NCBI RefSeq assembly: GCF_000226095.1
Contig: NC_016476.1
Coordinates: 496,001-560,000 of the forward strand
Origin: Thermothelomyces thermophilus ATCC 42464
Taxonomy: Eukaryota > Ascomycota > Sordariomycetes > Sordariales > Chaetomiaceae
Length of the DNA stretch: 64,000 bases
Direction: 5' to 3'
The position numbers and the translations under genes are program-made. The notes below the pieces were generated by a model. The model was given only the letters and a program-made list of their open reading frames with translations, had not been told where the DNA came from and ran no database searches. Position 1 is the first letter of the stretch. Each line of letters begins with the position of its first letter. This document shows, piece after piece, positions 38,926-62,000 of this stretch.

Positions 38926-39791
38926 CCAACTTAGACTTCTTCTAAAAGGGTGTCACGGAAATATGCATGCAGATGCCGCCTGAGCCACTGGCACGAATGG
39001 GCCAATCAAGTCGAAGGAACAAAAGGACCAATTACAGCATAGGAAGCATAGTGATCACTACGCTCACTAGTGATCAGGGTGATCACCACCATGCGATCAC
39101 TCACGATCACCGTGATCAGGAATGATCACTAGGATTATATATACATGTAGATAGTCACTCGTTATAGTGGACTCTGAGAGTTCACCAGTGGTAACAATCA
39201 CAATCACAGTACTCATACCAAGCATTGCTGATTACTGTGAGAGACAACTCTAAGTGTTGTTGTGAACCCTTTGGCTTCACCGAATCCCTCAGACGACCTG
39301 CCTGCTTGTCCCGCTTTACCTACCTCCGTCTGGACCCTTTCAGAAGAAGTCTGAGTTGGGTTCGTCACAAAGGGTTTAGACAAAGGTAAGTTAAGCGGGA
39401 CAAGTATATAGGTCGTCTAAGGGATTTAGTAAAGCCAAAGGGTTCATAACAACACTAGAGTTATCTCTTACAATAGTCAACGATACTTAGTATAAGTACT
39501 GTAATTGTAAGTTACTATTACTAGTAAACTCCTAGAGTCTACTATAACGAGTGGCTATTTACATGTATATATACTTCTGTCGATCGCTTATAGTCCCCTT
39601 CTATCCTATCCTTAGATTGCCTTTAGTAGCTAGCTATCCTCTGCTATCTTTCCCTTTTGGCAATCGTTTGCCTGTGGTAGCTTGCGCTCCCTAGTAATCC
39701 TGTGTTAGCCTCGCTTTGTGCCCTTCTTGATTAGTGGCTTATTTAGCCTCCTATGCCCTACCGGGTCGCGGTATATAGTTAGCTCGTGATA
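38926..39791 (-). repeat. E2 3' LTR, interrupted by a solo LTR
   Basis: Pieces 38926-38950 and 39375-39791 join across the solo LTR insertion. The U3 end (on the right in this orientation) reads CTCGTGATA next to CGATGCCCCC, the purine tract in reverse. Confidence 0.8.
38951..39369 (+). repeat. Solo LTR (419 bp), nearly free of RIP
   Basis: Begins TGTCACGG and ends TTCGTCACA, with the exact 5-bp target duplication AAGGG on both sides (38946-38950 and 39370-39374). The right half matches the R-U5 part of E1 and E2 LTRs (CACTCGTTATAGT to GGGTTCGTCACA). The left half is unrelated to either. It retains CpA and CpG sites and normal GC, unlike everything around it. It contains a cluster of GATCAC/GTGATC words at about 39,050-39,132. 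Confidence 0.9.
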
Positions 39792-39879
39792 CGATGCCCC
39801 CTCTTTAGGGCTTTCGACCTAAAAGCTTCTTATAACTTATTTTAAATACTATTAATACCCCCCTTTTCTAGTAGGTAAT

Positions 39880-40590
39880 GTCTTTCTTTTGCTAACTTCC
39901 TTTCGTTATAGCTAATCGTATTCCTAGGAATCGTCGTAATCTTAAATGCGAATGATATACTATTACGATTAAGATTAAGCGAGAGGGTTATAAGGTCATT
40001 ATACCTTATAAGCATTATTAGAATACGAAGCTATAAAAGCATTATATAATAATAGAGGGTTTAAACAAGTATTAAAACTATATTTATATAGGTAAGAAGT
40101 ATAGTAGTCCGAACGTTATAGATACCTATAGGTTCCTCGTTATTTTTCTTTATAGTCTTAAGTTACTAACTATCTTAGTCCTTTCAAATTTGTCGGAGCA
40201 AGAGAAGGTTTTAAGAGAGATTACTAAGACTAAGGCGCTACTTGCTTAGATGCTAAGCCATTTAAGTTAATTATATCGTTTATAGCAATCCCTACACGAT
40301 TATAGTACCAAAGTTTTTCGTCGTAGTATAGCTCGTCTAGAGGAGGAGGAAGAACTAGATACTCCTCTGCCGATGTTAGAGACATAGACCCTTGCAGGTT
40401 AGGCTTAGGCGTTAGGTGCTTTTGACGTGCTCGATTAGGAGTCGATTAGGTTAGATCCTAGTCCTAATTCTAGTAGGTTCCCCTCTTTTTCTATCGGGGA
40501 ATAGGCTTTAGAGCCGGTTCTTATAGCTAGTTAGGATTCTATCGGTAGAACTGCTCTAGTTTCTTAGGGCAATTTAGGTTCTTAATAGGT
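39880..40590 (+). pseudogene. E2 antisense accessory ORF (zinc-finger-like, coiled coil), RIP-mutated
   Basis: The strand opposite to E2 gag-pol reads a coherent protein: ANRIPRNRRNLK near the start, a possible degraded zinc-finger stretch (YIGKKYSSPNVIDTYRFL), then SEQEKVLREITKTKALLA, RL-QSLHDYSTKVFRRSIARLEEEEE and a tail with GAFDVLD and DPSPNSSRFPS. I recall fungal genomes with many hypothetical proteins of this kind (heptad Leu region then a VLDW-type tail). A possible intron (GTAATG, GCTAAC, TTATAG; 39,875-39,910) precedes it. It ends tail-to-tail with pol. A second copy lies in E5. Coordinates are approximate. Confidence 0.5.
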
Positions 40591-40599
40591 TCCTATAAG

Positions 40600-43500
40600 T
40601 TATCTTCTAGTCTAAAATTAGGCTATTTAACTAGGTACTATAGTTCTTTATTAATAATATATAAATCTAGGATTTCTTTAACGTCTTATTCTTCCTCTTT
40701 GTCCTTTGCTTCGATATATATAGTAACCTTGGCGTTCTTTGGTACTAGTTCGAGAAGTAAAATATAAAAGACATCTATCTATAGTTATATAGATAATGGT
40801 AACGATAGTTAGTAGTTAGATATTAAAATTTATTCTTTAATAATAAAGGGTCTAACCTTCTTAAAGTCTAGCTTCGTGCTTGGTCATTTGGTTTATAGGT
40901 TTTATATGATTAGGTAGACTCTATCTCTCCTCTCTAGGCAAGGTCCCTTAAGCCTATATTTGTTATAATAGTTCTTTATTTTAGTCCTAATAAACTCGAG
41001 TTCCTTTTTAAGCTTCTCGTATAGTATATATATTTGTTTTACTTTGACTGTTACTCTTGGCACCGTGACCTCTGGTCCTTGCCTAAGGTCTGCTTTATAT
41101 CTATAGTTTGTAAAGAACGGTATAACTTTAGTCGTTTCTATTGGTGTTATATTATAGGCAAGCTATACCATTAGTAATAGCATGACCTAGTCGTCTTGCT
41201 AGTAGTTAACGTAAGAACGGAGGTACTACTTAATAACTTAGTTTAGTTGCTCCGTTTGTCTGTCAGTCTATAGGTAATATGCTGTTAATAGCTTGCTATT
41301 AATGCCTAATCGTTATATTAACGCTTGTCAGAACTTCGATACAAACTTAGTGTCTCTATCGGTAATCTATTCTTGTAGTCAAGCGTATACTAATGTGACT
41401 TGCTAATAGATTACGTCTACTAACTGTCCTGCTATCTAAGACTCCTTGTGGGGAAAGAAGTATACCTATTTAGTTAGGTAGTCTACTCTAGTAAGAATAT
41501 TATCGTAGATTACCCTTATAACTATATCCTTAGATTCTAGTAGCTTTGTAATAAAGTCTATTATAATTGAACTCTATAGTTTATTAGCTATTAGTAGTAG
41601 CTAGAGTAGCCTATACGGCTTATACTATACCGCTTTGCTTTGATTATAGATATCGTAGTTCTATACAACTTCTTTACCTCGTGCCGTTAACTATAGAAAG
41701 TCGTAGTATTTCTTGACTTGTGTAATAGTCTTTGTAACTCCTTTATATCCTCCGAGTTTCGATTTATAGAGTTCTCGAATCATTCGTAGCTGTTAATCCC
41801 TATCATAGATATATACTTTGCCTTGGTACCAGAGTTTCCTATCTTTTTCTCCTACTCCGTTAGGTACTACTAGTCCGGGTGCTACTTAATACTATATCTT
41901 GTTAATTCTTTTTTCTTGAAAGATTGTGTAACATTCTAGGAATGAGTCGAGTAGTTTATCTTCTATAGGTATCTACGTTTTGTAATGTAGCGTTCCGTCT
42001 ATTCGTTCCTTAAATAACGGTAGCGTTGTTTCTATTTGTCCTTCTATATGATCCGTTCGTTAGTTTAAGGCGTCCGCTTATATATTCTCTTTGCCCTTCT
42101 TATAGTGGATCTTGAAATTAAATTCTATAAGGAATTCTACCTATTATATTTGTCGTCTATTAAGCTCCTTTATCGTCGTAAAGTATTATAAATTCTTATA
42201 ATCCGTATATATTTATATTAATTCGATTATACTACTAAGGTATAGTTATTATTCCTTAAAAGCTTCGATAATTATAAGTAGTTCCTTATTATAGATTAGA
42301 TAATTAAGATATAGTCTATCGAGCTTCTTTAAGAAGAAGGCTATAGGATATAGCTTCCCTTGTTTGTTTTGTTATCCTAACTATCCTCCGATAGTATAGT
42401 CTGAAGCGTCCGTTTCTACCTTAAATAGCTTCTTAGGGTCTGGTAGCACTAGTACTAGATCTTTAGTAATAGCGTCGCGGATCTATATAAATGCTTGCTC
42501 GTGTTGCTCTTCCTATTAGAATTTAGCGTTCTTCTTAGTAAGTTCGTATAAAGGTCGTACGATTGCTCTAAAGTTTCTAATGAACATCTAGTAGAAATTT
42601 GTAAATCTAATCAAACTTTATACTTCCGTAACTAACATCGGTTATAGCTAATTCTTAATAGCTTTAACCTTTGAAGGTTTTATCTAAATTTGTCCTAGGG
42701 ATATCTTATATCCTGAAAACACTATCTTCCTAACGTAGAATTTGCTCTTTTCTTTGTTAACTAATAGCTTATATATATATAATGCGTCTAGCACTACTTT
42801 TATATGCTTCCGGTGTTTGTCTATCGTCTTAGGGAAGATAAGTATATTATCGAGATAATATACTGTAAATTTGTCGAGAAAGGGTCGGATAGCTTGATCG
42901 ATTAGGGCTTAGAACGTTACTAGCGCGTTTATAAGTCTAAATAGCATAATAAGGTACTTATATAGTGGCTATAGGGTATCCTAAAGGCCGTTTTCTACTC
43001 GTTGCCTTCTTTGATCCATATATAGTTATAGGCCGATAGCAAGTCAAGATACGTAAAATATTAGACTCCTACTAACTAATCTTAGAGCTATAAGATTAGC
43101 GGTAATAGGTATCGGTTTTTCACGGTCTGTTTATTAAGTTACTAATAGTCGACATATAACAATAGCTTTCTATCTTTCTTAGGTATAAACAGAATTAGGT
43201 AGCCTACTAGCGATATTAATAGGCGGATATATCTTCTTTAAAGGTTTTTCTCTAAATATTGCTTAGGTTCTTCGTTTTATATTCAGCTTATCTAGTAAAT
43301 CTTAAAGAACTTTAGTTATACTCCTTCCTTAAGCTTGATCTTATAATCTATAGGCCGTGTTCTAGTAATCCTTCTAGATACTTCGGTTCGAATGCTAGGT
43401 GTCCTTCATATTTCTCTAGTACTTTCCTAGTCTTATTTTATCCCTTGGTTTTCTAATAGTATACAAACTTAGTTCTATCTATAGCGATACTAGCGATTTC

Positions 43501-46470
43501 TCCTATCTTAACCTACTACTCTAGTTATAGTGCTCTGTATTTGTTAACGGAGAGAACAGCTATTGGCGGTTTAGCTCGTTCCTCCTATTGTAACGTCGGT
43601 GTCGTTATATTGCTTCTTCTAGAGTCTGTAGTAGTCTGCCTGCTACTGTTCGTCTCTTATAGTGGATCTATAGAATATACCTTCCCCTAAGCATTGTCTG
43701 CTTGCGATCCTTGCGCGCTCCCTATCTTGCTAGTCAAATACGACTCTATTTAGGGTTATAGGTAGCTACTACTTCTCTAGCTAATGTCCGGGTTATAATC
43801 TTTATACTATAGTAACCCTAATATTATGTCTTTGTCGTTACCTATGTCTACGATACTAAATATAACTACTATAGTCTTCCCTGCTATAGTAATGTTAATT
43901 AGTTCGGTCTCCCTATATACCTATTACGTTAGAAATAGCCCTTTAACTATACCATACTTCCGCTTCATTCTCTAGGGTATCTATAGCTAATTTATAAGTA
44001 TCGGCGAAATTAGGTTTATCTCTACTCTATTATCCACTAGTACGAGCATTTTGTGCTATCTCTATTATACTATTATCTATAGTCGCTTATCTTGCCGCTA
44101 TCATCTAAAGATTATAGCGATTTCCTATATTTCTACTAGGAGGTCTTAATATAGTAGTCTCTTGCGCTAGTTCCTCCTATACTATGCTACTACTCTCTAT
44201 TATATAGGCATTAATGATTTTCGGGCCCCTCGAAGGGCCCTAACCTGTTTCCTAGGTTAGTGCTGACCTCTTTAGTTGTTTAGCTAATAGCGGCTTTATC
44301 AATCGTACCTATTTTTACAAGCTATTAAGTACTTATAGCTTCCTACTATTAGGTCTGTTCTACTCTTTATTGTACGTATTATAGCTTTATCTGAAGTTCC
44401 CGAATTCGCGATTTCTTTTCGTCTATATAGTAGAGGCAATTGTTGCTTTAGCACGAGTCCTATATATCTCGTCCTATTCTATAGTGCCTAGGCTAGGCTC
44501 GTTTTGGAATTACTGTGATGCCTTCTAGATTATGGGCTTCGATCTTCTAGAGCAATTTGGCTGCTCTGTTTCCTATATTATAGACCTATTCTATAGGGTA
44601 GAGGCTTCTGTCCTTATTTCCTTGTCAGGTCGGCTAGTAATTGTTTTCGAATTTGTCGTAAAAGTAGTATTAGCATTTGTATAATATATACTAGAACTAG
44701 GGCACTTGTATATATGCCTTGTATTATAGGTATAGTTATATAGCGTTGCCTAGAAGGTATTAGAATTCTTTTCTAAATCCTTCCTACTATACGTAGACTA
44801 TAGGTACTCTAATGCTAAGGTAGGAGTATTTCTTCTAGTAGTTTTCCTATATACGTTTGTCTTTTCTGTGGTTTATACGTATAAACTAGTACTCTAAGTT
44901 CTATATATCATAGCTAAGTTACTAATCGTTAAAATACTTAGTATAGCTGTCAGGCCTATCGTATATCATAGGCTATTCCCCTTTAATAGTTTCTATAATA
45001 CATTAGAGTTCCCTTATCTCGTCCCTCATCTTATCGCTCTACTAGGCAAGTCGAATTAAGCGTCTATCCTATTTATATAGTTTTATATTAAGCCGGAAAA
45101 CTTTATTATAATACTATTCGATTTGTTCTTAGAGGAATAGAATATTAGGTCTAGGTCTTTCGATTCCTTAGGTATCGATTGTCTATAATCTATCCTACCT
45201 CTAGGTAACTATGAAACCCTATTGCCTTAAGGCTAGGAGAATCGAAATTAGTGGTATATATTCTCCTGCCGTATCCTGTTTAGCAAGACCTGTCTCTAGG
45301 TCTATAGTGACCAGTTTAGAGTATAGTGCTTATTTGTCTTTACTATCGCCATTACATCTAAGACTATCTGTATTATTATCCTTATTTTTATAGCTTATGG
45401 CTACTACTTTGATGACATCCTTAGCAATTTCGTTAATAGCTATAATTTCCTTTCTAGGGACTAGTTTCTAGTCTTTCTTTAGGCTTTGACATTCTCGTTT
45501 ATAGTGTCCTTTCTTTCCGTAGTTATAGTAGGTAACGTTAGACTTATCTTTAGTCGTCTTCTTCTTGTCTTACTTCTATGCTATATCTATATCTATAGCT
45601 CTAAGATACGTCCTATATAAGGTATTAATGTATGCTTGTTTTTTCTTATCATCAGCCTTAACTATAGTTCTATTTATCTAACCTTATTTCTACTACTCTT
45701 ATATATAGAGTTAATTATTAATCTTAATAGCCTATATAATATATTTGTCTAGGGTCTTAGGCTAGTTATATTTATATAGTTCGTCTTTAACCTTTTCCTT
45801 TAAGCTATTATAGAATAGTTATATTAATGCCTTATTATTAAGCTAAGACTTAAGTATATCCTATCTAAACTATATAGTATAGGAAGCTACTAACTTAGTC
45901 TATCAGAGACTAGCAAGTCTTTCTTATATATGAATCTTTCTATCCTTGTCGCTAAAAACCTTCCGAAGCTCTTCTTTAAAATAGTTATAGGATCAAAAGA
46001 CTGCCTATATAAACATGTCTTAGTCGTCTTTATCTTCCTTAGTAAGATAGTCATTCTATATAGGCTCGAACTATCTAAGTACCTTGCCCTCTAGTCTTAT
46101 AGCTATATAGAGGACTTTAGCTTTATTATCTAGAAACTTGTTATCATTAAGCCGAAAGTAAGATTAGAGGTTTGTCAGGAATCCTATAAGATCCTCCTTA
46201 GTTCCTCTATATTTGCTAGATAGTTTAATCTTGATACGGCTCGCTTTGGCGCCTTTGAGTGCCTTGATTTTGGTGTAGGCCTCGTTAACTAGCTTCTACG
46301 AGTGCTTTTTACCATTCTCGAGTTCCTTAATCTGAGCTTAAGTAGCCTTATCTCTCTAGTCTAACTCCTGGATCTGCTAATAGAATTGACTAAGCTAGGT
46401 AAGTAGCTGTTCGGCCGTAATGTTAGTAGTTATATCGATATTAAGGTCGAAATTACCTTTATCCTAAACC
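40600..46470 (-). pseudogene. E2 gag-pol with chromodomain, RIP-inactivated
   Basis: Read on the minus strand it matches E1 throughout: gag near 46,450-45,600, the protease/gag junction around 43,400-45,400, reverse transcriptase with RPFLDKFTVYYLDNILI near 42,850 (YLDD to YLDN), RNase H, integrase, and a chromodomain end near 40,600-40,760. Many TAG/TAA stops at Gln and Trp positions. Confidence 0.75.
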
Positions 46471-46499
46471 ATAATAGAACAAAGGGAGTGATAATAATA

Positions 46500-46951
46500 T
46501 ATAATAAACCTAACTTAGACTTTTTCTAAAAGGGTTTAGACAAAGGTAGGTTAAGCAAGACAAGCGTATAGGTCGTCTAAGGGATTTGGTAAAGCTAAAG
46601 GGTTTATAATAATACTAGAGTTATCTCTTATAGTAATTAACGATACTTAGTATAAGTACTATAATTGTAAGTTACTATTACTAGTAAACTCCTAGAGTCT
46701 ACTATAACGAGTGGCTATTTATATATATATATACTTTTGCTAATCACTTATAGTCCCCTTCTATCCTATCCTTAGATTGCCTTTAGTAGCTAGCTATCCT
46801 TTGCTATCTTTCCCTTTTGGCAATTGTTTGCCTATAGTAGCCTGCGCTCCTTAGCAATCCCGTGTTAGCCCCGCTTTGTGCCCTTCTTAATTGGTGGCTC
46901 ATTTAGCCTCCTATGCCCTACCGGGTCGCGGTATATGGTTGGCTCGTGACA
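46500..46951 (-). repeat. E2 5' LTR
   Basis: 452 bp. Ends CTCGTGACA on the right (TGTCACGAG in element orientation), followed by the target duplication CCTAT. Its U3 begins TGTCACGAGCCAACCATATA, unlike E1. Confidence 0.85.
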
Positions 46952-47889
46952 CCTATATCCTATATACTAACTATACTACCATTCGAAATAGCTATAGCCG
47001 CTTACCCTTTAACCTTATCTATAACTATAATCCTATTAGCCTGATCGAAAATAATGTCCCTACCTAGCAAATTTTTTACTAGGACTCTATAGCCGTCCGA
47101 CTAGATAGGGAAAATCAAGCGGAAGCCTGTCTACGATTACTAGAACTCTATACTAAGGTATTACTCGCTATAGAGTTTGATCTAGAAGTTACTACTAAAA
47201 AAGTTGCCAAAGCTAGATAAAAAATGGCTAAGCGCCGAAACAAAGCCTATAGCCGTAAATTTAGAGCTAAGAATGCCTAAATTAAAGTAAGCAATCTTAT
47301 TCTAGTTTACAATAATATTTGGCAGATCGATATAAGTTCGTTTTAGAAACTCTAATATCGGTAGTATAGCCTATACTAAGTCTAGGAAGTTAGGAATAGA
47401 AATACCTACTACCTGGAGACTCTTAACGATATGACTATATAGATATTATATACTACGAATCGTATTAAGAAGTTTTTTAAGCGGGATAGAGTTTAGCTTA
47501 AAGCTAATAGATCTAACAGTTTTCCAGGCAAGTAGAACTCCTAGAATTAGGGAGTAGGTTCTTTGCTACCGGAAGCGCTTAAAGAAGTAATAGTAGAAGA
47601 GGAAGCTCCTAGCCAAACTAGGTAACTATAACCAAGTGACCGACTTACTAGATCTAAAGCCTAAGAGTAATGACGATAATGGTAAGAGCTTATAGTCGAA
47701 CTAACTAGAGGGAAACTACCTAGATTCTGATATTTACGTTATTAATAGAAATATAAGTTAACCCCTTCGATTTTACTTCTATTTATTCTTTACTACCGTA
47801 CCCCTATTTACCCCTTTTCTATACCGCCTTTGCCCCTTTTTCCCAATCCCCTAATTCCCTAGTTCCCTACCTATACCTATCATTTACCC

Positions 47890-49179
47890 CGTTTATAAGC
47901 TACCTATTAATCCCAAACCGTACCCTCTGAATCTGCTAAAATCTAAGAGCCCTTCTTCTACGTTACTAGCTAGACATTCTTTGGCTAGCTATTAAGGTTA
48001 AATTTAGCCTGACCTATAAGCCAAGGGTTAGGATCTTAGGAATTACCATTAACTATATCTTCCTATAAGCATTTTTTGTCACTCTAGTAGCAGTTTCTAT
48101 ACCGTCTGTCTAGGATAGGACCTACTAAGATATAGCTATAGAATGGCTATATAGTATAGATAGTTATAGGCTTCTTGTTCCTTAGAGGGGTGACCTTAGT
48201 CGTCGACCTTTGGTAGGACTGCTTGTAGGCCTAGTATAGTATAGGATTCCTATATCCCTGATTAGATCTTCCTCTGACTAGAGGGAGGGAGTTATTCTTA
48301 TATATCTCCGAATACCTAGATAAATAGACCGAGAACTCGAGCCTAGTAGGTAACTATAGTATGGATCCATCGGCCAAACGGACTACTGTTATTAATTTCC
48401 GTAAAAACCAGGTGTAACCGCTTCGCTAGAGCTCCCTTATAGGTATAGAAGAAATCTATATAAATAGGAGTAAGTCTTAGGATTCTAAATATTCGTTCTA
48501 AGGCATTAGGATTTAGGTCTAGTTCCTAATAAATATATAGGACTACCTATATCTTAGGGTGCTTAATGAAGAAGAATCTATAGTATGAAAGAAATAGCTT
48601 ATACTAGTATTATATCAAGGCTACCTCTAGATAGTCTAAAGGCATTAGAGGATCTTCTAGATAAGCCGCTCTCACTACCTATATAAACTTAGGAGGCGTA
48701 ATAAACCGGTTATCCTAGGTAGTCGTCAAATCTACCGGCCGGTTAGTTATAGAAGGAAGTATAGGCTTAGTATCCTTGTCGATTTCTATATCTTCCCAGA
48801 TAGAGGATTTATATCTCTAGTGCTTAATTCTCTCGGTAGACATAGTAGTCGAACTTGCTTATAGGAGCTTATAGCAAGTTCGAAGGGAAAGTAATATAGG
48901 AAGAAGCAGTACTAGCCGTCTAGGTAGAGAGAGACGATTATAAGCAAGAGTTAGTTAGAGGAGTGGAAAAGTAGGAAGAAGTTCAAGGAGAAATAGAGGA
49001 TACTTATCCTTTAAACGTTTAATAGTTAGGGTATTAGAACTACTAGACTTCCATTCGAAGAAGGTACGCCTGGGCCGGAATGACCTATTATATAAGAGGT
49101 TATACTTCTTTATTATTAACCAGATAAAACGTAAGTCAAGGTCATTCCCTAAGGTCATAATGAAGAATGACCTAGTCAT
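47890..49179 (-). pseudogene. Possible antisense accessory ORF of E3
   Basis: From an ATG at 49179 the minus frame can be followed for about 430 codons to near 47,890, interrupted only by TAG/TAA. A second in-frame ATG is at 48841-48843, followed by MSTERIKH, SSIWEDIEIDKDTKPILPSI and NRPVDLTTT. The stop density (about 7%) is similar in one plus-strand frame of the same region, so coding on this strand is not proven. No family recognised. If real, it diverges from the sense accessory ORF starting at 49,376. Confidence 0.3.
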
Positions 49180-49375
49180 ATAGAGGCTAATATAACTACC
49201 TTATTAGATAGCTCTAGAACTAGTAAATACAGCCTAGAATAGCTAGATAAGGAAGGCATCTAAGAGGAATTAGAAGGTCTATAAATACCTTTAACTTAAC
49301 CCTCTTCTCCTCTCTCTTTTCTATAACCAACAACTATAAACTATAAATCGCTAACTTACAAAAACGCTAAACATA
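49180..49375. promoter_or_regulatory. Candidate internal promoter of E3 accessory ORF
   Basis: A TATAAATA word at 49,280, a CT-rich tract (about 49,302-49,322) and an A-rich leader precede the ATG at 49376, an arrangement like a fungal core promoter. It could serve two divergent ORFs. Confidence 0.35.
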
Positions 49376-50515
49376 ATGTCTTCTCCGCCTAGTCAGATAG
49401 CTAGGCGCCATTAGGTAAGTGTCCCTCCAAGCGATTTTTTTCCGAATGTTAATAGTCTAGGTTTTAAGCGACTCTATATAAGTCTTCCGATGGTAAATAT
49501 ATATAGGAATAACGTTAGAGAGTTAGATCGAAGAAGAAGAGAAGGATCGGTTCCTCTCCCTCTGACTAGAGGGCTAAGCTAACCGAGTATAGGACTACCT
49601 TTACTCCTTCTAGGAGAAGATCCCGAAACCCTAAAGCTCTTTCTTTGGTACCTCCTTATAACTTAGGTTCCGGGGGAAGAAATTGCTAACTACCTAGGGA
49701 GTAGTAATACCTAGAAGCTCTTTAATAAACTATATATTAGGCCTATTCCCTACTCTAAGGAAGTAGTAGTAAGAAGGCTAGAGTGGCTTATAAGCCCTAG
49801 TCTAGAAACTAACAAGTAGATCGTTAGTTACCTATTCCCCTTATATACTAGGCTATATAGCTAGGGGAAGATATACTTTAGTATACGTTAGTATAATATT
49901 GCTATAAGCCTATATAATATTAAAGGGCTTATATTAAAAAAGGAGTACCTAAACGGTTATAACCTCCTAAACCTGCTTTGATATACGCTAGTGGCTTATA
50001 AGCTATATGTCTATATCTTTCTAGAGGCCGTTACTAACTTAAAGCCTAAGTAGTTAGTACTACCCTTATAAAAACAGAAGGAAGCGGCCGGAAAACGATT
50101 CTAGGTAATCGTTTGCCACTTATAAGCATTATACTGAGTAGTAGCTATATATGACTAGATAGAGTCTTATCTCTATTATATAGACTTTCATCCTTCTGAC
50201 AAGTAGAGTCGTAAAGACCTATTTAAGACTCTATAGGATAAGGTCATTTACCCTAGCTTTCTTTTTCTATTATCTAGGGCCTATATATACTAGATAATGG
50301 TATAGGCGATATTAAGATAGAAAGGCTAATAGGAATGCGGTATCTAGGTTGCTAAGTTCTATCGTTTCTACTTCTAGGAGGTACGACAAGGAGACAAGGC
50401 ATAGCTTAAGCTCCCCTAGCAGAAGGGCCATCTATATATAAGGCTAAAAGTAATAGAGGCTAAGAACAAGATATTAATACTCTGGCTTAGAATAGTCTAG
50501 ATAGCTTTAGGCCAT
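49376..50515 (+). pseudogene. E3 sense accessory ORF, 5' part (interrupted by E1)
   Basis: Starting MSSPPSQIARRH, one frame runs about 380 codons to the E1 insertion, with only TAG/TAA/TGA at plausible Trp/Gln/Arg sites. It includes LTRGLS, GLPLLLLGEDPETLKLFLWYLL and RPIPYSKEVVVRRLEWLISPS. It resumes in the same frame after E1 at 58,118. It is not gag, pol or any family I recognise. Aromatic- and Leu-rich blocks are frequent. E3 has room for it between integrase and 3' LTR. Confidence 0.45.
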
Positions 50516-50969
50516 TGTCACAGATAAGCACATAGACGGCCTGGCAGGCTATAGCCAGGACGCAGGACATTCCGACAGCCAATCACTTAACGGGCTAATC
50601 AGAAGATTATCACTACCAAGACTAAGGTCTTCACTGGTGATAATAACATGTCACCGTTGACAACACGGAATCACAGAGTAAAAGGAGAAATAGTACTAGT
50701 GATAACTATTAAAGAGAGATAGATAATTATATATATATAGCTAGCTAGTCACTCGTTATAGTAGACTCTAGGAGTTTATTAGTAATAGCAACCTAACTTA
50801 TAATCATAGTACTTATACCAAGCATTGCTAATTACTATAAAAGACAACTCTAAGTATTGTTATAAACCCTTCGGCTTCACCGAATCCCTTAGACGACCTG
50901 CCTGCCTGTCCCGCTCAATCTACCTTCGTCTAAACCCTTTTAGAAGAAGTCTAAGCTAGGTTCGTCACA
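50516..50969 (+). repeat. E1 5' LTR
   Basis: 454 bp, TGTCACAGAT...TTCGTCACA. Same length as the 3' LTR; differences are transitions. A TATATATATA box near 50,730 precedes the CACTCGTTATAGT block that marks the start of the shared R-U5 half. Confidence 0.9.
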
Positions 50970-51035
50970 CGTTACTATCACTCCCTTTGTTCTATCATAG
51001 TTCAGAATGGAGGTGACCTCGACCTCGACATCGAT

Positions 51036-54000
51036 ATGGCTACTAACGTTACGGCCGAATAGCTGCTTGCCTAGATTAGTTAACTCTAGCAGCGGATCTA
51101 GGAGTTAGACTAGAGAGATAAGGTTACTTAAGCCCGAATTAAGGAACTCGAGAACGGCGAAAAGTACTTATAGAAACTGGTTAACGAGGCCTATACTAAA
51201 ATCGAAGCGCTTGAGATTGCTAAAGTAAGCTATATCAAGATTGAACTACCTAGTAAATACGGAGGAACTAAGGAGGATCTTATAAGATTCCTAATAAACC
51301 TCCGATCCTACTTCTAGCTTAATAACGACAAGTTTCCGGACGACAAAGCCAAAGTTCTCTATATAGCTACAAGATTAGAGGGCAAGGCACTTAGATAGTT
51401 TAAGCCTATATAGAACGACTATCTTACTAAGGAAGACGAAGACGACCAAGACGCATTTACGTAGATAGTCTTCTAATCTTACGACCGTTTCGAAGAAGAG
51501 CTTCGGAAGGTTTTTAGCAATAAAGACGAGAAGATTTATATGTAAGAAAGACTCGCTAATCTCTAATAGAATAAGTCGGCAGCCTTTTATACTATATAGT
51601 TTAGACAGGACATGTTCAAGTCTTAGCTTAACGACAAGGCATTAATATAACTATTCTATAACGGCTTAAAGGAAAAGGTTAAAGACAAGCTATATAAGTA
51701 CGATTGGCCTAAGACCCTAGACGAATATATTATATAGGCTATTAGAATCGATAATTAACTCTATATATAAGCGTAGCAGAAATAAGGACAAATGAACGGA
51801 ACCACGGTTAAGGCTAATGACAAGAAAAAGCAAGTGTACGTTAGTACCTTGTACGGGATATACCCTAGAGCCATAGATATAGATGTAGCATAGAAGTAGG
51901 ACAAGAAGAAGATAGCCAAAGATAAGTCTAACGTTACCTACTATAACTATAGAAAGAAAGGACATTATAAACGAGAATGTCGAAGCCCGAAGAAAGAATA
52001 GAAACTAACCCCTAGGAAGGAAATTATAGCTATCGACGAAACCACTAAAGACATCATCGAAGTAGCGGCCACGAGCTACAAAGACAGGGGCAGTAACACA
52101 GATAGTCTCGGACGTAACGATAATGGTAAAGACGAACAAGCACTATACTCCGAACTAGTCACTATAGACCTAGAGACAGGTCTCGCCGAATAGGATATGG
52201 CAGGAGAATATATACCGCCAGTTTCGATTCTCCTGGCCTTGAGACAGTAGGGTTTTACGGTTACGCAGAGGCAGGATAGATTGTAGATAACCGATATCTA
52301 AGGAATCGAAAGACCTAGACCTAATGTTCTATTCTTCTAGGAATATATTAAATAGTATTGTAACGAAGTTTTATAGCTTAATATGGAACTATACGAACGG
52401 GATAGACGCTTGATTTGACTTGCCTAGTAAAGCGATAAGATAAGGGACAAGATAAGGAAACTCTAATATATTATAGAAACTATTAAAGGGGAATAGCCTA
52501 TGATATATGATAGGCCTGATAGCTATGCCGAGTATTTTAACAATTAGTAACTTAGCTACGATGTATAGAACCCTAAGTACTAGTTTATACGTGCGAACCG
52601 CGGAAAAGATAAGCGTACGTAGGAAAGCTATTAGAAGAAACACTCCTACCTTAGCATTAGAGTATCTATAGTCCACGTATAATAGGAAGGATTTAGAAAA
52701 GAATTCTAATACCTTCTAGGTAACGCTACACGACTGTACCTGCGATACGAGGCACATGTACAAGTGCCCTAGTTCTAGTGTATAGTATACGAATGCCGAT
52801 ACTACTTTCGCGACAAATTCGAAAACAATTACTAGCCGACCTGACAAGGAAATAAGGACAGAAGCCTCTGCCCTATAGAATAGGTCTATGATATAGGAAA
52901 CAGAGCGGCCGAATTGCTCTAGAAGATCGAAGCCTGCGATCTAGAAGGCATTACGGTAGTTCTAAAGCAAGCCTAGCCTAGGCACTGCGGAATAGGACAA
53001 GATATATAGGACTCGTGCCAGAGTAATGACTGCCTCTATTACGTAGACGAAAAGAAATCGCGGATCTAGGAGCTTTAGATAAAGCTATGGCATGTACGAC
53101 GAAAAGCAGAACAGACCTAATGGTAGGAAGCTATAAGCACTTAATGGCTTATAGAAATGAGCACGATCGACGAAGCTACTATTAGCTAAATAACCGAAGA
53201 GGTTAGCACTAACCTAGGAAACAGGTCAGGGCCCTTCGAGGGGCCTAAAAACTATTAACGCCTGTATAGCGGCAAGTGGTAGCATAGTATAGAAGGAACT
53301 AGCGTAAGAGACCACTATATCGAGACCTCCCGGCAGAAATATGGGAAATCGCCGTAATTTTTGGACGACGGCGGCAAGACAAGCAACTATAGATAATAGC
53401 ATAATAGGAACAGCACGAAATGCTTGTACTAGTAGATAGTAGAGTAGAGATAAACCTAATTTCGCCGACACTTGTAAATTAGCTATAGATACCCTAGAGA
53501 ATAAAGTAAAAGTATGGCATAGTCAAAGGGCCATTTCTAATATAATAGGTACGTAGGGAGACCGAACCAATCGACATTACTATAGCAGGGAAAACTATAG
53601 CAGTCATATTTAGCATTATAAACATAGGCAACAACAAAGATATAATATTAGGATTACCATAGTATGAAGATTATAACCCGGACATTAGCTAGAAGAATGG
53701 TAGCTACCTATAACCCTAAACGGAGTTATATTTAACTAGCAAGATAAGGAGCATACAAAGATCGTAAGCGGACGATGCTTAGGGGAAGGCATGTCCTACG
53801 GATCCATCGCAAGAGACAGATAGTGGCAGGCAGACCACTACAGACTCTAGAAGAAGCAGTATAACAATATCGACATTACAACAGAAGGAACGAGCTAAAC
53901 CGCCGATAGCTATTCTCTCCGTTAACGAATGCGGAGCATTATAACTAGAGTAGTAGGTTGAGATAGGAGAAATTACTAGCATCGCTATAGATAGAACCAA

Positions 54001-56968
54001 GTTCGTATACTACTAGAAAACTAAGAAACGAGACAAGACTAGGGAAGTACCGAAGGAATATAAAGGATACCTAGCATTCGAACCGAAGTATCTAGAAGGA
54101 TTACCAGAACACGGCCTATAGGATCACGAGATCAAGCTTAAGGAAGGAGTATGACTAAAGTTCTTTAAGATCTACTATATAAGCCAGATATAGAACAAAG
54201 AACTTAAGCAATATTTGGAGGAGAACCTTCAAAGAGGATATATCTGCCTATTAACATCGCTAGCAGGCTACTTAATCCTGTTTATGCCTAAGAAAGACAG
54301 AAAGTTACGGTTATATATCGACTATTAGTAACTTAACAAGCAGACCGTGAAAAACCGATACCCGTTACCGCTGATCTCACGGCTTTGAGATCAGTTAGCA
54401 GGAGCCTAATATTTTACGTATCTTGACTTGCCATCGGCCTATAACTATATATAGATCAAAGAAGGCGACAAGTAGAAAACGGCCTTTAGGATACCCTATG
54501 GCCACTACAAGTACCTTGTCATGCTATTTAGACTTATAAACGTGCTAGTAACGTTCTAAGCCCTAATTAATCAAGCTATTCGACCCTTTCTTGACAAATT
54601 TGTAGTATATTATCTTAATAATATACTTATCTTCTCTAAGACAATAGATAAATACCGGAAGTACATGAAAGTAGTGCTAGATGTGCTATATGTATATAAG
54701 CTATTAGTTAATAAGGAAAAGAGCGAATTCTATATCAGGAAGACAGTCTTTTTAGGATACAAAATATCCCTAGGATAAATCCGGATAGAACCTTTAAAGA
54801 TTAAAGCTATCAAGAATTAGCTATAACCGACGTTAGTTACGGAAGTACGAAGCTTTATCGGATTTACAAACTTCTACCGGATGTTCATTAGGAACTTTAG
54901 AGCGATCGTACGACCTTTATACAAACTTACCAAGAAGAACGCTAAATTCTAATAAGAAGAGTAATATGAGCAAGCATTTATATAGATCCGTAACGCCATT
55001 ACTAAAGATCTAGTACTAGTGCTACCAGATCCTAAGAAGCCATTTAAGGTAGAAACAGATGCTTTAGACTACGCTATCAGAGGACAATTAGGATAACGAG
55101 ACGAACAAGGGAAGCTATATCCTATAGCCTTCTTTTCAAAGAAGCTCGATAGACTACGTCTTAATTATCCGATCTATAATAAGGAACTACTTGCAATTGT
55201 CAAAGCTTTTAAGGAATAGCGACTATACCTTAGTGGTATAATTAAACTAATACAAGTATATATAGATTACAAGAATTTACGATACTTTATAATGACAAAG
55301 GAGCTTAACAAACAACAAATACAATAGGTAGAATTCCTTATAGAATTCAATTTTGAGATCTGCTATAAGAAGGGCAAAGAGAACGTACGAGCGGACGCCT
55401 TAAGCCGACGAACGGATCATACGGAAGGACGAACGGAAACAACGCCACTATTATTTAAGGAACAAATAGACGGAACGCTACATTACAAAACGCAGACACC
55501 CGTAAAAGACGATCTACTCGACTTATTCCTAGAATGTTACGTAATCTTTTAAGAAAAAAGGATTAACGAGGTATAGTATTAAGCAATACCCGGACCAGTA
55601 GTACCTAATAGAGTGAAGGAAAAAGATAGGAAACTCTAGTACCGAGGCAAAGCGTATATCTACGACAAAGATTAATAGCTGCGAATGATTCGAGAACTCT
55701 ACGAGTCGAAACTCGGAGGATATAAAGGAGTTACGAAGACTGTCGCACAAGTCAAGAAACACTATGACTTTCTATAGTTAACGATACGAGTTAAGGAAGT
55801 CGTATAGAGCTGCGACATCTACAATTAAAGCAAAACGGCATGATATAAGCTGTATAGGCTACTTTAGCTACTACTAATAGCCGACAAACTATAGAGTTTA
55901 GTTACGATAGACTTTATTATAAAGCTACTAGAATCTAAAGACACGGCTATAAGGGTAATCTATAATAGTATTCTCACTATAGTAGATCGCCTAACTAAAT
56001 AGGCATACTTCTTTCCCTATAAGGAGTCCTAGACAGCTAAATAGCTAGTAGACGTGATCTATCGGCAAGTCGCATCAGTACACGCTTAGCCATAGGAATA
56101 GATTACCAACAGAGACACCAAGTTCGTATCGAAGTTCTAGCAAGCATTAATGTAACAATTAGACGTCAATAGCAAGCTATTAACGGCATATTACCTATAG
56201 ACTGACAGACAAATAGAGCGACTAAACTAAGTTATCGAGTAATACCTTTGTTCTTACGTTAACTACTAGCAAGATAACTAGGTCATGCTATTGCCAATAG
56301 TATAACTCGCTTATAATATAATATTAACAGAAACAACCAAAGTCATACCGTTCTTCGCGAACTATAGATATAAAGCAGACCTTAGGCAAGGACCAGAGGT
56401 CATAGTGCCAAGAGCAGCAGTCAAAGCGGAACAAATGTATACATTGTATAAGAAGCTTAAAAACGAACTTGAGTTTGTTAGAACCAGAATAAAGAACTAC
56501 TATAACAAATATATGCTCAAGGGACCTTGCCTAGAGAGAGGAGACAAAGTCTACCTAGTTATACGAAACTTACAAACCAAATGACTAAGCACAAAGCTAG
56601 ACTTTAAGAAGGTCAGACCCTTCGTTATCAAGGAACGAATTTCGACATCTAACTACCGACTATCGTTACCATCATCTATACGATTACAGACGAATGTTTT
56701 TTATATTTCACTTCTCAAACCAGTACTAAAGAACGCTAAGGTTGCTACATATATCGAAGCAAAAGACGAAGAGGAAGAATAGGACGTCGAAGAAATTCTA
56801 GATTTACATATTATTAATAGAGAACTATAGTATCTAGTTAAATAGCTTGATTTTGGACTAGAGGATAACTTATAGGAACTAGTCAAGAATTTAAATTACC
56901 CTGAGAAACTGGAACAGTTCTACCGGCAGAACCTAGATCGACTAAAGGAAAACTTAGGACAGAACTAA
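51036..56968 (+). pseudogene. E1 gag-pol with chromodomain, RIP-inactivated
   Basis: Gag begins MATNVTAE and contains ELPSKYGGTKEDL. Its zinc knuckle reads YYNYRKKGHYKRECRSP, two Cys mutated to Tyr. Protease LVLVDSRVEINLIS is near 53,425 (DSG to DSR). Reverse transcriptase has YLDLPSAYN, KTAFRIPYGHYKYLVMLF and the catalytic box VVYYLNNILIFSK-like near 54,610, with both Asp mutated to Asn. RNase H is followed by the integrase zinc region (ELYESKLGGYKGVTKTVAQVKKHY, about 55,700) and DDE core. The chromodomain is near 56,740-56,900 (EEILDLHIINRELQYLV-like, W to stop). It ends QNLDRLKENLGQN. At least one indel shifts frame between start and end. Confidence 0.8.
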
Positions 56969-56978
56969 AGACGGTGCC

Positions 56979-57531
56979 CTAGTTAACAGCATCGACAGCA
57001 TCATTAATCTATAACGAGGGTATAGCAGGCGCCCCTTGCCGCTTAACCTCCTCTAACTCGTCTAAGGTTGACAGACTACGCGCCACCATATTGGCACCTT
57101 TCTCTACCAAAAACTCCTTCTACTGACGAAGACGCCGGAGCCGCGCAAGCTTTTCAGACAACTTGTACTAGGCTTCTTCCAGACAGTATTAAGATTTATC
57201 TAGCTCAAGTTTGGCACGACGTTTAGCATCCTTAATACGACGCTACTCCTAGAGAATGCGATTTACTAGAACGAACATTAGGAATTACATTTAAAAAAAA
57301 AAAAAAGGGGGAGACGTGCTTATAGGAAGAAAGTGGTATGCTAGAGCTATCGTAAGAACGACCTTGACGAACGTAGGCTTTGTAACGCTTCGTACACGCG
57401 ATCATTTTGCAGACGAGGCCTTATAACGCGTACCAAGAGCAAGGCATAACGACAAAACCGTTCTTAGCAATATTTTAAGCAAGGGAAGCACAGTAACGTA
57501 TACAATACAACTTCCGTTTCTCTATCGGCAT
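56979..57531 (-). pseudogene. E1 antisense accessory ORF (Cys-rich N-terminus, coiled coil)
   Basis: The minus strand starts MPIEKRKLYCIRYCASLAQ (Gln from a stop), continues with Cys-containing CKMIACTKRYKAYVRQGRSYD, then a probable intron holding the A14 tract (T-rich on this strand; CTAATG branch-like, TTCTAG acceptor). It resumes RIKDAKRRAKLELDKS, YKLSEKLARLRRLRQ, KEFLVEKGANMVARSLSTLDELEEV and ends INDAVDAVN at TAG (56979-56981). The pattern resembles a class of fungal hypothetical proteins with a Cys-rich head, a Leu/Arg coiled coil and an (R)GAxMxxRG-SLDELE motif. It is unrelated to the E2 antisense ORF and tail-to-tail with pol. Confidence 0.5.
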
Positions 57532-57620
57532 TTTGTTAATATAGCGACTATAACGTAGAAACAGGAAGAATGTAGTACTTACAAGCGAAGGGTTGTTAGC
57601 GCTATTTAAAATGGCCTAAG

Positions 57621-57653
57621 AAGGCTTTCAGGTCGAAAGCCTTGAAGGAGGGG
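57621..57653 (+). promoter_or_regulatory. Hairpin and polypurine tract upstream of E1 3' LTR
   Basis: A perfect 9-bp stem AAGGCTTTC/GAAAGCCTT with a 5-nt loop (57621-57643) is followed by GAAGGAGGGG, the presumed plus-strand primer. The same hairpin core and purine tract occur in E2 (39,792-39,830) and E5 (60,736-60,772), although sequence on both sides differs. Confidence 0.7.
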
Positions 57654-57658
57654 CATCG

Positions 57659-58112
57659 TGTCACGGATAAGCATATAGACGGCCCGGCAGGCTATAGCCA
57701 GGACGCAGGACATTCCGACAGCCAATCACTTAACGGGCTAATCAGAAGATTATCACTACCAAGACTAAGGTCTTCACTAGTGATAATAACATGTCATTGT
57801 TGACAATACAGAATCACAGAGTAAAAGGAGAAATGGTACTAGTGATAACTATTAAAGAGGGATAGATAATTGTATATATATAGCTAGCTAGTCACTCGTT
57901 ATAATAGACTCTAGGAGTTTACTAGTGATAGTAACCTAACTTATAATTATAGTACTTATACTAAGTATTGCTAATTACTGTGAGAGACAACTCTAAGTGT
58001 TGTTGTAAACCCTTCGGCTTCACCGAATCCCTTAGATGACCTGCCTGCCTGTCCCGCTCAATCTACCTTCGTCTGAACCCTTTTAGAAGAAGTCTGAGCT
58101 GGGTTCGTCACA
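57659..58112 (+). repeat. E1 3' LTR
   Basis: 454 bp, TGTCACGGAT...TTCGTCACA, followed by target duplication GCTAT. Confidence 0.9.
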
Positions 58113-58950: not shown

Positions 58951-59411
58951 TATAGACTAGGGCTAGTAGCTTTTGATATAACTAGAGGGACATAGGCTAT
59001 AGTTTTGTTTTTCTAGTTCTATAGAACTTTATTATATATGATAGGTATAAATAGGGGTTACCTATCTAGGGGCACTAATAGGAGGTAAGTAGAGAGATAG
59101 GGACAATAGATAGTTTTTAACACTCGTTTGCTTTAATAGATTTAAGGGACAAGATATAGTTCTTCTTTCTTTTGTAAGTTAGGACATCTTTTTCTACGTA
59201 AGTAGACTCCTTTATATCTGTCTAGAGGGATATCACTACCACTACCTTTGCCTCTATCGCTATTATCGTCTAGATGGTCAGACTTGCCTGCTGTGACCGC
59301 GAATACTTGGATGCCCTGGACATTTTAAGCTAACGCTCCTCCCTATCTAACTAGACGGAGGTTTGGTTCTAGAGGTGCTAAGTAGTGCCTTAGAGGGTTA
59401 GCACTAGCTTA
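58951..59411 (+). repeat. E3 3' LTR
   Basis: 461 bp matching 31798-32259. Less mutated in its second half (GGTCAGACTTGCCTGCTGTG is retained). Followed by resumed LINE sequence. Confidence 0.8.
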
Positions 59412-60814: not shown

Positions 60815-61480
60815 AGTAGGTAATGTCTTCCTTTTACTAACTTCCTTTTGCTATAGCTAATTATATTCCTAGGAATCATTACGATCTTAAACGCGAATAA
60901 TACATTATTATAATTAAGATTAAGCGAGAGGGTTATAAAGTCGCTATACCTTATAAGCGTTATTAGAATACAAAGTCGCGAAAGCGTTATATAATGATAG
61001 AGAGTTTAAATAAGTATTAAAACTATATTTATATAGGCAAGAAGTATAATAGTCTAAATATTATAGATATCTATAGGTTCCTTATTATTTTTCTTTATAA
61101 TCTTAGGTTACTAACTATCTTAGTCCTTTTAAATTTATTAGAGTAAGAGAAGGTTTCGAGGGAGATTGCTAAGACTAAGGTATTACTTACTTAGACATTA
61201 AGCTATTTAAGTCGATTACGTCGTTTATAGCAATCCCTGTGCGATCGTAGTACCGAAGTTTTTCATCGTGGCATAGCTTATCTAGAGGAGGAAGAAGAGC
61301 TAGATACTCCTTTGCTGATGTCAGAGATATAGACCCTCGTAGGTTAGGTTTAGGCATTAGGTACTTTTAACGTGCTTAATTAGGAGTCGATCGGGTTAGA
61401 TCCTAGTCCTAATTTTAATAGGTTCCCCTCTTTTTCTATTAGAGAATAGGCTTTAGAGCTAGTTTTTATAGCTAGTTAGG
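60815..61480 (+). pseudogene. E5 antisense accessory ORF, 3'-truncated by E6
   Basis: Same frame content as the E2 antisense ORF, including the Leu heptad region, the SIARLEEEEE-type acidic stretch and the DPSPN tail. It ends at the E6 insertion. Independent mutations in the two copies make them useful for reconstructing which changes are RIP. Confidence 0.45.
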
Positions 61481-61934
61481 TGTCACGGATAAGCATATAG
61501 ACGGCCCGGCAGGCTATAGCTAGGACATAGGACATTCCGACAGCTAATCACTTAACAGACTAATCAGAAGATTATCACTACCAAGACTAAGGTCTTCACT
61601 AGTAATAATAACATATCACTGTTAACAACGCGGAATCACGGAGTAAAAGGAGAAATGATACTAGTAATAACTATTAAAGAAGGATAGACAATTATATATA
61701 TATAGCTAGCTAGTCACTCGTTATAGTAGACTCTAGGAGTTCACTAGTAATAGTAACCTAACCTACAATTACAAGTACTTATACCAAGTATTACTAGCTA
61801 TTATAGGAGATAACTCTAATATTATTATAAACCCTTTAGCTTTACCAAATCCCTTAGACGACCTATATATTTGTCCCGCTTAGTTTACCTTCGTCTGAAC
61901 CCTTTTAGAAGGAGTCTAAGTTAGGTTTATTACA
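61481..61934 (+). repeat. E6 5' LTR (E1-type U3)
   Basis: 454 bp, the same length as both E1 LTRs. Begins TGTCACGGATAAGCATATAG; its end is mutated to TTTATTACA. Confidence 0.85.
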
Positions 61935-62000
61935 CGTTGCTATTACTCCCTTTGTTCTATTATAGTTTAAGACAAAGGTGATTTCGACCTTGATATCGAC

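What the first reader, a model, noticed from the sequence alone, without database searches (positions are those of the whole stretch)
39880..57531. Two unrelated antisense ORFs in otherwise matching chromoviruses
Between pol and the hairpin/purine tract, E1 carries an antisense Cys-rich coiled-coil ORF (56,979-57,531) and E2/E5 carry a different antisense zinc-finger-like ORF (39,880-40,590; 60,815-61,480). Gag-pol and the hairpin/purine block are shared. Antisense cargo therefore changes together with U3, as if a 3' cassette (antisense gene plus promoter) were a swappable module. Antisense ORFs near the 3' LTR are known in some plant Gypsy lineages. I do not know of a description of cassette exchange in fungi.
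Basis: partly seen in the sequence, partly recalled or inferred. Interest (0 to 1): 0.75.

Follow-up and report, generated by a model that had tools for sequence, protein, structure and literature searches.

The report
Swappable antisense-gene cassette in fungal retrotransposons
In a heat-loving fungus, one family of retrotransposons keeps nearly the same main genes but carries several very different versions of a small backwards-facing gene together with its promoter, as if this end piece were an exchangeable control module.

Summary
E1 and E2 are Ty3/Gypsy chromoviruses in a RIP-damaged block of Thermothelomyces thermophilus. RIP-proof (transversion) divergence of gag-pol is 0.30% within and 0.32% between cassette types, while the module between chromodomain and hairpin differs by 20-30% in the pairs compared (shuffled control 31%). 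Six module types were seen: four on an indistinguishable backbone, one on a slightly older one, one compared only at the end of pol. 24 of 46 informative gag-pol sites are polymorphic in both main types, so exchange was recurrent. Module and U3 stay linked: 342 matched junctions, none in the three mismatched combinations searched. All 41 modules read encode, antisense, one gene family (profile E 5e-5 or better; 0 of 123 shuffles): a Cys-rich, Zn2Cys6-like part and a coiled coil, with an intron shown for the E1 and E2 types. Most likely the protein is a DNA-binding regulator of its own U3, exchanged as a unit with it by template switching, or by recombination followed by retrotransposition. Exchange is shown; regulation is inferred, and repeated U3 motifs support it in some types only. 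I found no description in fungi in the papers searched.

The parts
50516..58112 (+). E1: chromovirus with cassette type 1; TSD gccat/gctat (one C/T difference)
   Evidence: LTR pair 94% identical; RNase H, integrase H2C2 and SH3_Tf2-1 domains, RT just below cut-off; flanks
50516..50724 (+). U3 of type 1, 5' LTR (second copy 57659-57867)
   Evidence: similarity to E2 begins only at 50725, the inferred U3/R border
50725..56935 (+). shared backbone of E1: R-U5, gag, pol, ending just after the chromodomain
   Evidence: 84.6% to E2 over 6214 columns; gag-pol transversion divergence as within one type; R-U5 follows type a little
57324..57531 (-). antisense gene type 1, exon 1 (Cys-rich, Zn2Cys6-like)
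   Evidence: homologues P0008, P0011
57266..57323 (-). antisense intron type 1, 58 nt; donor ATAAGC here, GTAAGC in L010 and L039; pyrimidine tract; branch CTAAT; acceptor TAG
   Evidence: protein P0008 reads straight across the joint
56883..57265 (-). antisense gene type 1, exon 2 (coiled coil, DW motif), stop TGA at 56885-56883; overlaps the 3' end of pol
57620..57658 (+). shared hairpin and polypurine tract before the 3' LTR of E1
57659..58112 (+). 3' LTR of E1
39361..46952 (-). E2: chromovirus with cassette type 2
   Evidence: LTR pair; chromodomain trace E 0.008, below cut-off, in the window copy, E 2e-12 in copy L038 of the same type
39908..40127 (+). antisense gene type 2, exon 1 (Cys-rich); start codon reads ATA here
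   Evidence: P0030
40128..40178 (+). antisense intron type 2, 51 nt; donor ATAGGT here, GTAGGT in four AS2 rows (three distinct copies); branch CTAAC; acceptor CTTAG
   Evidence: proteins P0025 and P0028 read straight across the joint
40179..40585 (+). antisense gene type 2, exon 2 (coiled coil), ends inside the 3' end of pol
39789..39830 (-). polypurine tract and hairpin of E2
60853..61480 (+). E5: type 2 antisense gene, cut by the E4 5' LTR
61481..64000 (+). E4: element with type 1 U3, runs off the window
38948..39369 (+). E3: solo LTR with type 3 U3 and similar R-U5
   Evidence: pairs about 7.07 kb apart elsewhere in the genome

Best explanation
This is one chromovirus family with an exchangeable 3' control cassette. 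The cassette begins right after the chromodomain of pol and holds (1) a small gene on the opposite strand, with an intron in types 1 and 2, coding a Zn2Cys6-like, coiled-coil protein, (2) a shared hairpin and polypurine tract, (3) U3. Shown: six diverged cassettes, four of them on an indistinguishable gag-pol, one on a slightly older gag-pol (L027) and one compared only at the end of pol (L033); gene type and U3 type travel together; exchange happened repeatedly. Inferred: U3 works as a two-way promoter, driving gag-pol from the 5' LTR and the antisense gene from the 3' LTR; the protein binds its own U3 as a dimer and regulates it (repression seems somewhat more likely than activation). Exchange route (inferred): because reverse transcription copies U3 from the 3' end of the RNA into both LTRs, one switch of template at the end of pol, or one DNA crossover there followed by retrotransposition, moves antisense gene and U3 as a unit and leaves most of R-U5 with the backbone.
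For: Gag-pol transversions 0.0030 within and 0.0032 between types; modules 0.195-0.297 between types (five pairs, one per comparison), 0 and 0.006 within types (two pairs), shuffled control 0.308. 24 of 46 informative backbone sites polymorphic in both AS1 and AS2; 231 of 1035 site pairs show all four gametes; L026 (AS1) shares eight informative alleles with L027 alone. Junctions: AS1-U3-1 167, AS2-U3-2 99 (one looks like a chance match), AS3-U3-3 76; AS1-U3-2 0, AS2-U3-1 0, AS1-U3-3 0. 17 of 18 U3-concordant elements with readable flanks have a 5-bp TSD; both discordant ones (L023, L042) lack it. One gene family: 41 of 41 modules hit on the antisense strand, none on the sense strand, 0 of 123 shuffles. 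Intron: unmutated donors in some copies, homologous proteins that read across the joint, exon sums 588 and 624 nt, both divisible by three (coordinates). Long helix, residues 23-84 of P0028, pLDDT 97-98 over 31-70; the nine best Foldseek matches of the Cys part are Zn2Cys6 DNA-binding domains, though at E above 1. Repeated 6-mers in U3-3 (6 of 6 copies), L035 and L027 (1 of 1 each), control 1 of 40.
Against: No transcript, binding or expression data. Pfam Zn_clus stays below its cut-off and does not appear for the homologues scanned. All six Cys are read in single copies only for AS1 (L012) and AS2 (L030, L038); elsewhere some positions read Tyr, L033 has Asn at the second and L027 another spacing. 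U3 repeats are not significant in type 2 (2 of 19 rows; 1 of 17 distinct) or L033, and only in 7 of 15 rows (6 of 14 distinct) of type 1; U3-3 and L035 have the same top 6-mer. R-U5 is not wholly free of type: 0.0184 between against 0.0083 within. Linkage may reflect adjacency and history. hhalign of RIP-damaged exon 2 alone was weak for AS1-AS2 (probability 18%) and meaningless for AS2-AS3; 6 of 35 trimmed cross-family protein pairs, all with P0025, have E above 0.01 or no match. Codon-position test p 0.13.
Confidence: 0.55

Rival explanations
1. Passive linkage: the antisense gene and U3 are exchanged together only because they are neighbours; the antisense protein has another job (for example in the particle, nuclear entry or integration) and does not act on U3.
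For: Adjacency alone gives co-inheritance; type 2 U3 shows no significant repeats in most copies; no Pfam DNA-binding domain passes its cut-off.
Against: The similar hairpin/PPT block lies between gene and U3 and offers homology for decoupling, yet 342 junctions are matched and none mismatched in the three mismatches searched; Zn2Cys6-like spacing plus coiled coil suggests a DNA-binding dimer.
Confidence: 0.3
2. Exchange by recombination between integrated copies rather than by template switching; a chimera with U3-x at the 5' end and cassette y at the 3' end then retrotransposes into an element with two U3-y LTRs.
For: L023 (5' U3-1, 3' AS2 and U3-2) and L042 (5' U3-3, 3' AS2 and U3-2) are such chimeras and lack TSDs.
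Against: Only 2 of 19 elements with both U3s readable among L023-L042 and the window are discordant. This route ends in the same product, so the two cannot be told apart from the copies.
Confidence: 0.35
3. The protein is a transactivator of its own U3, comparable to foamy virus Tas or HTLV Tax (recalled), not a repressor.
For: Zn2Cys6 proteins are mostly activators (recalled); the tail after the coiled coil has low model confidence (residues 108-164), as flexible activation domains often do; the repeats lie upstream of a TATA-like run.
Against: An activator alone gives no obvious gain from changing type, whereas several types on one backbone suggest selection to differ (inference).
Confidence: 0.3
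4. The antisense frames are chance: non-coding antisense DNA that looks open.
For: All copies in the window are stop-ridden.
Against: Uninterrupted proteins of 155 and 164 aa in Canariomyces and Parathielavia that read across the joints; a 213-codon run free of fixed stops in the AS2 antisense frame, the longest of six frames; profile hits on the antisense strand of 41 of 41 modules and on none of the sense frames.
Confidence: 0.02
5. No exchange: fast evolution of the 3' end in place on one lineage.
For: U3s and accessory genes often evolve fast (general knowledge).
Against: A 60- to 100-fold contrast in transversions with a sharp border, and backbone alleles shared across cassette types.
Confidence: 0.02

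Closest known systems
Retand elements of plants (Ty3/Gypsy) with antisense TRP28 ORFs between pol and 3' LTR (PMC11963269, passages read)
   Same: Antisense gene between pol and the 3' LTR, in 97% of the clusters there; product predicted to bind DNA; a transcriptional role is suggested there.
   Different: Non-chromovirus plant lineage; TRP28 (PF04195) was not among the Pfam matches here; pol-to-3' LTR region 2.9-6.6 kb there, about 0.7 kb here; the passages read do not describe exchange of gene with U3, and the word intron does not occur in its main text.
HTLV-1 HBZ and APH proteins (PMC10186651, passages read)
   Same: Antisense gene expressed from the 3' LTR, with spliced forms; HBZ has a bZIP region; HBZ lowers HTLV-1 expression from the 5' LTR; LTRs work in both directions.
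   Different: No homology claimed; deltaretrovirus; HBZ acts through partner proteins; no cassette exchange in the passages read.
Ty1 copy number control and Ty1/Ty1' recombinants in yeast (PMC7055915, abstract read)
   Same: A self-encoded restriction factor whose specificity differs between subfamilies and whose gene was acquired by recombination between elements.
   Different: Copia element (recalled); the factor derives from gag, in sense; not linked to the promoter.
Template switching in Triticeae LTR retrotransposons (PMC1950507, abstract read)
   Same: Mosaic elements attributed to reverse transcription.
   Different: Large fused elements; no accessory gene exchange in the abstract.
Tcn1-like chromoviruses of fungi and plants (PMC2864245, two passages read)
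   Same: Chromoviruses; a figure legend lists an additional ORF of unknown function.
   Different: I saw neither which element carries that ORF nor its strand; 'antisense' and 'opposite' do not occur in the main text.
Immunity regions of lambdoid phages (recalled)
   Same: A repressor gene and its operators exchanged as one block on a shared backbone.
   Different: DNA phages; used only as an analogy.

Membership tests
Ty3/Gypsy chromovirus | RT, RNase H and integrase domains in Gypsy pol | tested here: met
   RT_RNaseH 9e-25, SH3_Tf2-1 7e-13, Integrase_H2C2 2e-6; RVT_1 seen in two pieces (E 4e-6 and 3e-6), each just below its cut-off
Ty3/Gypsy chromovirus | C-terminal chromodomain | tested here: met
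   PF00385 E 2e-12, 47.3 bits against cut-off 25.1, in copy L038; below cut-off in window E2 and absent in window E1
Ty3/Gypsy chromovirus | LTRs TG..CA with 5-bp TSD | tested here: met
   TGTCAC..GTCACA; 17 of 18 concordant elements with readable flanks, three of them with one C/T difference; L035 lacks it
Zn2Cys6 fungal regulators | CX2CX6CX5-12CX2CX6-8C (recalled motif) | tested here: inconclusive
   AS1 meets it in one copy (L012); AS3 and L035 have the spacing but some positions read Tyr in every copy, taken as RIP; AS2 (L030, L038) is CX2CX8CX8CX2CX6C, two residues too long in the first loop; L033 has Asn at the second position; L027 has another spacing
Zn2Cys6 fungal regulators | Pfam Zn_clus at gathering score | tested here: not met
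   best 13.5 bits against 21; DUF3716 17.5 against 22. UniRef names P0025 'Zn(2)-C6 f...'
Zn2Cys6 fungal regulators | binuclear cluster fold | tested here: inconclusive
Zn2Cys6 fungal regulators | sequence-specific DNA binding | not testable with these tools
   needs a binding assay
Retand TRP28 antisense proteins | TRP28 domain PF04195 | tested here: not met
   absent from hmmscan lists at E up to 10, with HMMER's filters on
HBZ-like antisense regulators (functional likeness only) | antisense transcript from 3' LTR | not tested

The most novel reading that the evidence does not exclude
The cassettes are retrotransposon immunity types: each antisense protein represses elements that carry its own U3, so a copy that changes cassette escapes the repression set up by resident copies. 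Fungal chromoviruses would then run a repressor-operator system with up to six specificities, shuffled over one gag-pol backbone much as lambdoid phages shuffle their immunity regions.
Probability: 0.25. Interest if true: 0.92.

Novelty: new variant of a known kind. Interest (0 to 1): 0.77.

Why it matters
Antisense accessory genes are known from plant Gypsy elements and some retroviruses, but their job in retrotransposons is open. Here nature has run the exchange experiment: one backbone, several gene-plus-promoter types, hundreds of copies, with RIP-proof markers that separate exchange from divergence. That makes a regulator-and-target hypothesis directly testable with small proteins and about 200-bp promoters, and it gives a simple rule (U3 follows the 3' end of the RNA) for why promoter and 3' gene should move together in any LTR element. 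It also shows that families named by LTR sequence can share one gag-pol, which matters for annotation of fungal genomes.

Tried and rejected
Rejected: 'unrelated ORFs', chance frames, in-place fast evolution, each cassette captured only once.

Duplicate rows: L001 and the window E2, L009 and the window E1, and L036m_3073 and L037 are the same places. So 44 module rows are 41 distinct modules (AS1 14, AS2 18, AS3 6, L027, L033 and L035 one each). Searches contain the duplicates; searches do not. One search also leaves out L007 (insertion at its U3). L017-L022 were picked by their paired type 3 U3s, so their U3 concordance is by selection. L023-L042 are the first 20 zero-mismatch hairpin places on C1. 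TSDs could not be read for L017, L019, L021, L022, L024, L033, L036 (both) and window E2. One search left out piece P0 (R-U5 and leader), where between-type divergence is higher; it is given. The matched letters of the junction searches were shown for only part of the places (the first of 167, 56 of 99, none).
Full report
Setting. The window is C5:496001-560000 of a 38.7-Mb genome in 7 contigs. Named proteins on contigs of the same lengths as C5 and C1 (4,342,007 and 10,931,058 bases) identify it as Thermothelomyces thermophilus ATCC 42464. From about 30 kb onward the window is AT-rich with strong RIP signatures: TA/AT 1.45-2.25 against 0.39-0.85 in the first 30 kb. No ORF of 100 aa or more overlaps 35-64 kb, so the 'ORFs' of the finding are broken frames.

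Same backbone. E1 and E2 align without a break from the inferred start of R to the end of pol at 84.6% identity. RIP makes only transitions (established knowledge), so I compared transversions. In nine pieces of gag-pol the mean transversion divergence is 0.0030 within cassette types (81 pairs) and 0.0032 between AS1, AS2, AS3 and L035 (195 pairs); L027 is slightly older at 0.0067-0.0073; L033 could be compared only in the last piece, 0.001-0.002 to the other types except L027. R-U5 follows type a little: 0.0184 between and 0.0083 within types, about 0.05 to L027; the leader and start of gag 0.0054 and 0.0044. The element is a chromovirus: RNase H, integrase H2C2, SH3_Tf2-1 and an RT split over two pieces, chromodomain E 2e-12 in copy L038. 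The cassette begins about 6 bases after the end of that chromodomain match.

Different 3' ends. Of 48 pol ends found, 44 have the hairpin 658-713 nt downstream; L013 has 1145 nt with a nested LTR, and three have no hairpin in range. The 44 rows are 41 distinct modules and fall into AS1, AS2, AS3 and the single copies L027, L033 and L035. AS2 has no blastn match to the others; AS1, AS3 and L035 still align in part (AS1-AS3 up to 65% over 455 columns) and share the first 78 nt after the pol end at 76-86%. Transversion divergence of whole modules, one pair per comparison, is 0.195-0.297 between types, 0 and 0.006 within types, and 0.308 against a shuffled module. U3-1 and U3-2 do not align; the U3s of type 3, L033 and L035 still match in part at 66-69%. 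The hairpin/PPT block between gene and U3 is similar in all; its pattern occurs 820 times in the genome and 0 times reversed.

Recurrent exchange. Of 46 backbone transversion sites with the minor allele in at least two of 25 elements, 24 are polymorphic in both AS1 and AS2, and 231 of 1035 site pairs show all four combinations. For example, L026 (AS1) shares eight informative alleles with L027 alone, and L034 (AS1), L031 (AS2) and L035 share gag alleles. Hence cassettes moved between backbones more than once, or backbones recombined freely under the cassettes.

Linkage. Patterns that span the hairpin found 167 AS1-U3-1, 99 AS2-U3-2 and 76 AS3-U3-3 junctions, and 0 of AS1-U3-2, AS2-U3-1 and AS1-U3-3. 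One of the 99 looks like a chance match. These exact patterns cover 342 of about 820 places, and three of the six possible mismatches among these three types were not searched. Of 19 elements with both U3s readable among L023-L042 and the window, 17 have the same U3 type at both ends; the two that differ (L023, L042) lack a TSD, while 17 of 18 concordant elements with readable flanks have one. L023 and L042 therefore look like chromosomal chimeras, and a transcript of such a chimera would carry the 3' cassette into both LTRs of its offspring. Template switching during reverse transcription gives the same product in one step. Both explain why U3 goes with the antisense gene while most of R-U5 stays with the backbone.

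One gene family. A profile built from 12 uninterrupted homologues, searched against six-frame readings with X at stops, hits the antisense strand of 41 of 41 modules: AS1, AS2 and AS3 strongly, L035 at 1e-15, L033 at 1e-8, L027 at 5e-5; no sense frame and none of 123 shuffled modules reach 1e-3. The antisense strand reads a Cys-rich part, then a coiled-coil part, in AS1 ending in LSTLDELEEVE and similar elsewhere. In AS1 and AS2 an intron lies between them: AS1 with donor GTAAGC, a pyrimidine tract, CTAAT or CTGAT and TAG; AS2 with donor GTAGGT, CTAAC or CTGAC and CTTAG; the donor is unmutated in L010 and L039 (AS1) and in L032, L036m_3073 (same place as L037) and L038 (AS2). Exon lengths sum to 588 nt (AS1) and 624 nt (AS2), both divisible by three (coordinates). 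Public proteins P0025 (T. thermophilus), P0028 (Parathielavia appendiculata) and P0008 (Canariomyces notabilis) read straight across these joints, while P0030 reads through the intron. P0008, a homologue of AS1, and P0028, a homologue of AS2, align at 35% over 180 columns, E 2e-20. Without the C-terminus E is 3.6e-13, the Cys part alone 4.5e-6, the coiled-coil part alone 2.3e-8; the trimmed pair scores 47.8 bits against at most 30.8 in 200 heptad-block shuffles (E-values are for single comparisons). Of 35 trimmed cross-family pairs 29 reach 1e-4 or better; the six that do not all involve P0025. Profiles of RIP-damaged exon 2 alone were weak for AS1-AS2 and meaningless for AS2-AS3 but strong for AS1-AS3. 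An intron can persist in a retrotransposon if it is antisense to the genomic RNA, which fits (inference).

What the protein may do. The Cys spacing is CX2CX6CX8CX2CX6C in AS1, with all six Cys read in L012, and CX2CX8CX8CX2CX6C in AS2 (L030, L038). AS3 and L035 have the AS1 spacing, but some positions read Tyr in every copy, which I take as RIP of Cys codons; L033 has Asn at the second position and L027 another spacing. Pfam Zn_clus stays below cut-off, so I call it Zn2Cys6-like and do not file it as a member. AlphaFold gives one long helix for residues 23-84 of P0028, with low confidence after residue 107. The Cys part models poorly (pLDDT 64); its nine best Foldseek matches are Zn2Cys6 DNA-binding domains, with E above 1. 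A zinc cluster followed by a coiled coil is the plan of Gal4-type dimers (recalled). Upstream of a TATA-like run, a 6-mer is repeated more than in shuffles in U3-3 (6 of 6 copies, GATCAC), L035 (GATCAC), L027 (CGATCA), type 1 in 7 of 15 rows (mostly AGTGAT), type 2 in 2 of 19 and L033 in 0 of 1; control gag-pol pieces 1 of 40. U3-3 and L035 share the top 6-mer and differ in the flanking base (TGATCAC against GGATCAC), a contrast I chose after seeing the sequences. This suggests, but does not show, that each protein has its own sites in its own U3.

Verdict. Cassette exchange on one backbone: shown. One antisense gene family, with an intron in two types: shown by homology and protein records, not by RNA. 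Regulation of the own U3: inferred, about even odds. Immunity-type repression: the boldest reading left open. Known relatives in function are the antisense genes of Retand elements and HBZ; the nearest precedent for exchange of a self-control factor is Ty1 copy number control (abstract).

Noticed in passing
38948-39369: Solo LTR E3 carries a third U3; it abuts the 3' LTR of E2 head to head, giving a near-palindromic junction at 39369.
   Followed up: partly
L023:1-9001 and L042:1-9001: Chimeric elements with different U3 types at the two ends and no TSD, likely products of ectopic recombination.
   Followed up: yes
L027:1-9001: An older backbone variant (transversions about 0.7%) with its own cassette, nested inside a type 1 element.
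   Followed up: partly
31801-32259 and 58953-59411: Another repeat, 88% identical, outside the LTR elements discussed.
   Followed up: no
56883-56968: The C-terminus of the antisense gene and the end of pol overlap on opposite strands by about 85 bases, so both strands appear to be coding there.
   Followed up: partly
29500-30500: Sharp change from about 55% to 36% GC: border of a RIP-damaged block.
   Followed up: no
17153-17236: tRNA gene with unclear anticodon (ARAGORN gives a four-base anticodon), perhaps because of an intron.
   Followed up: no
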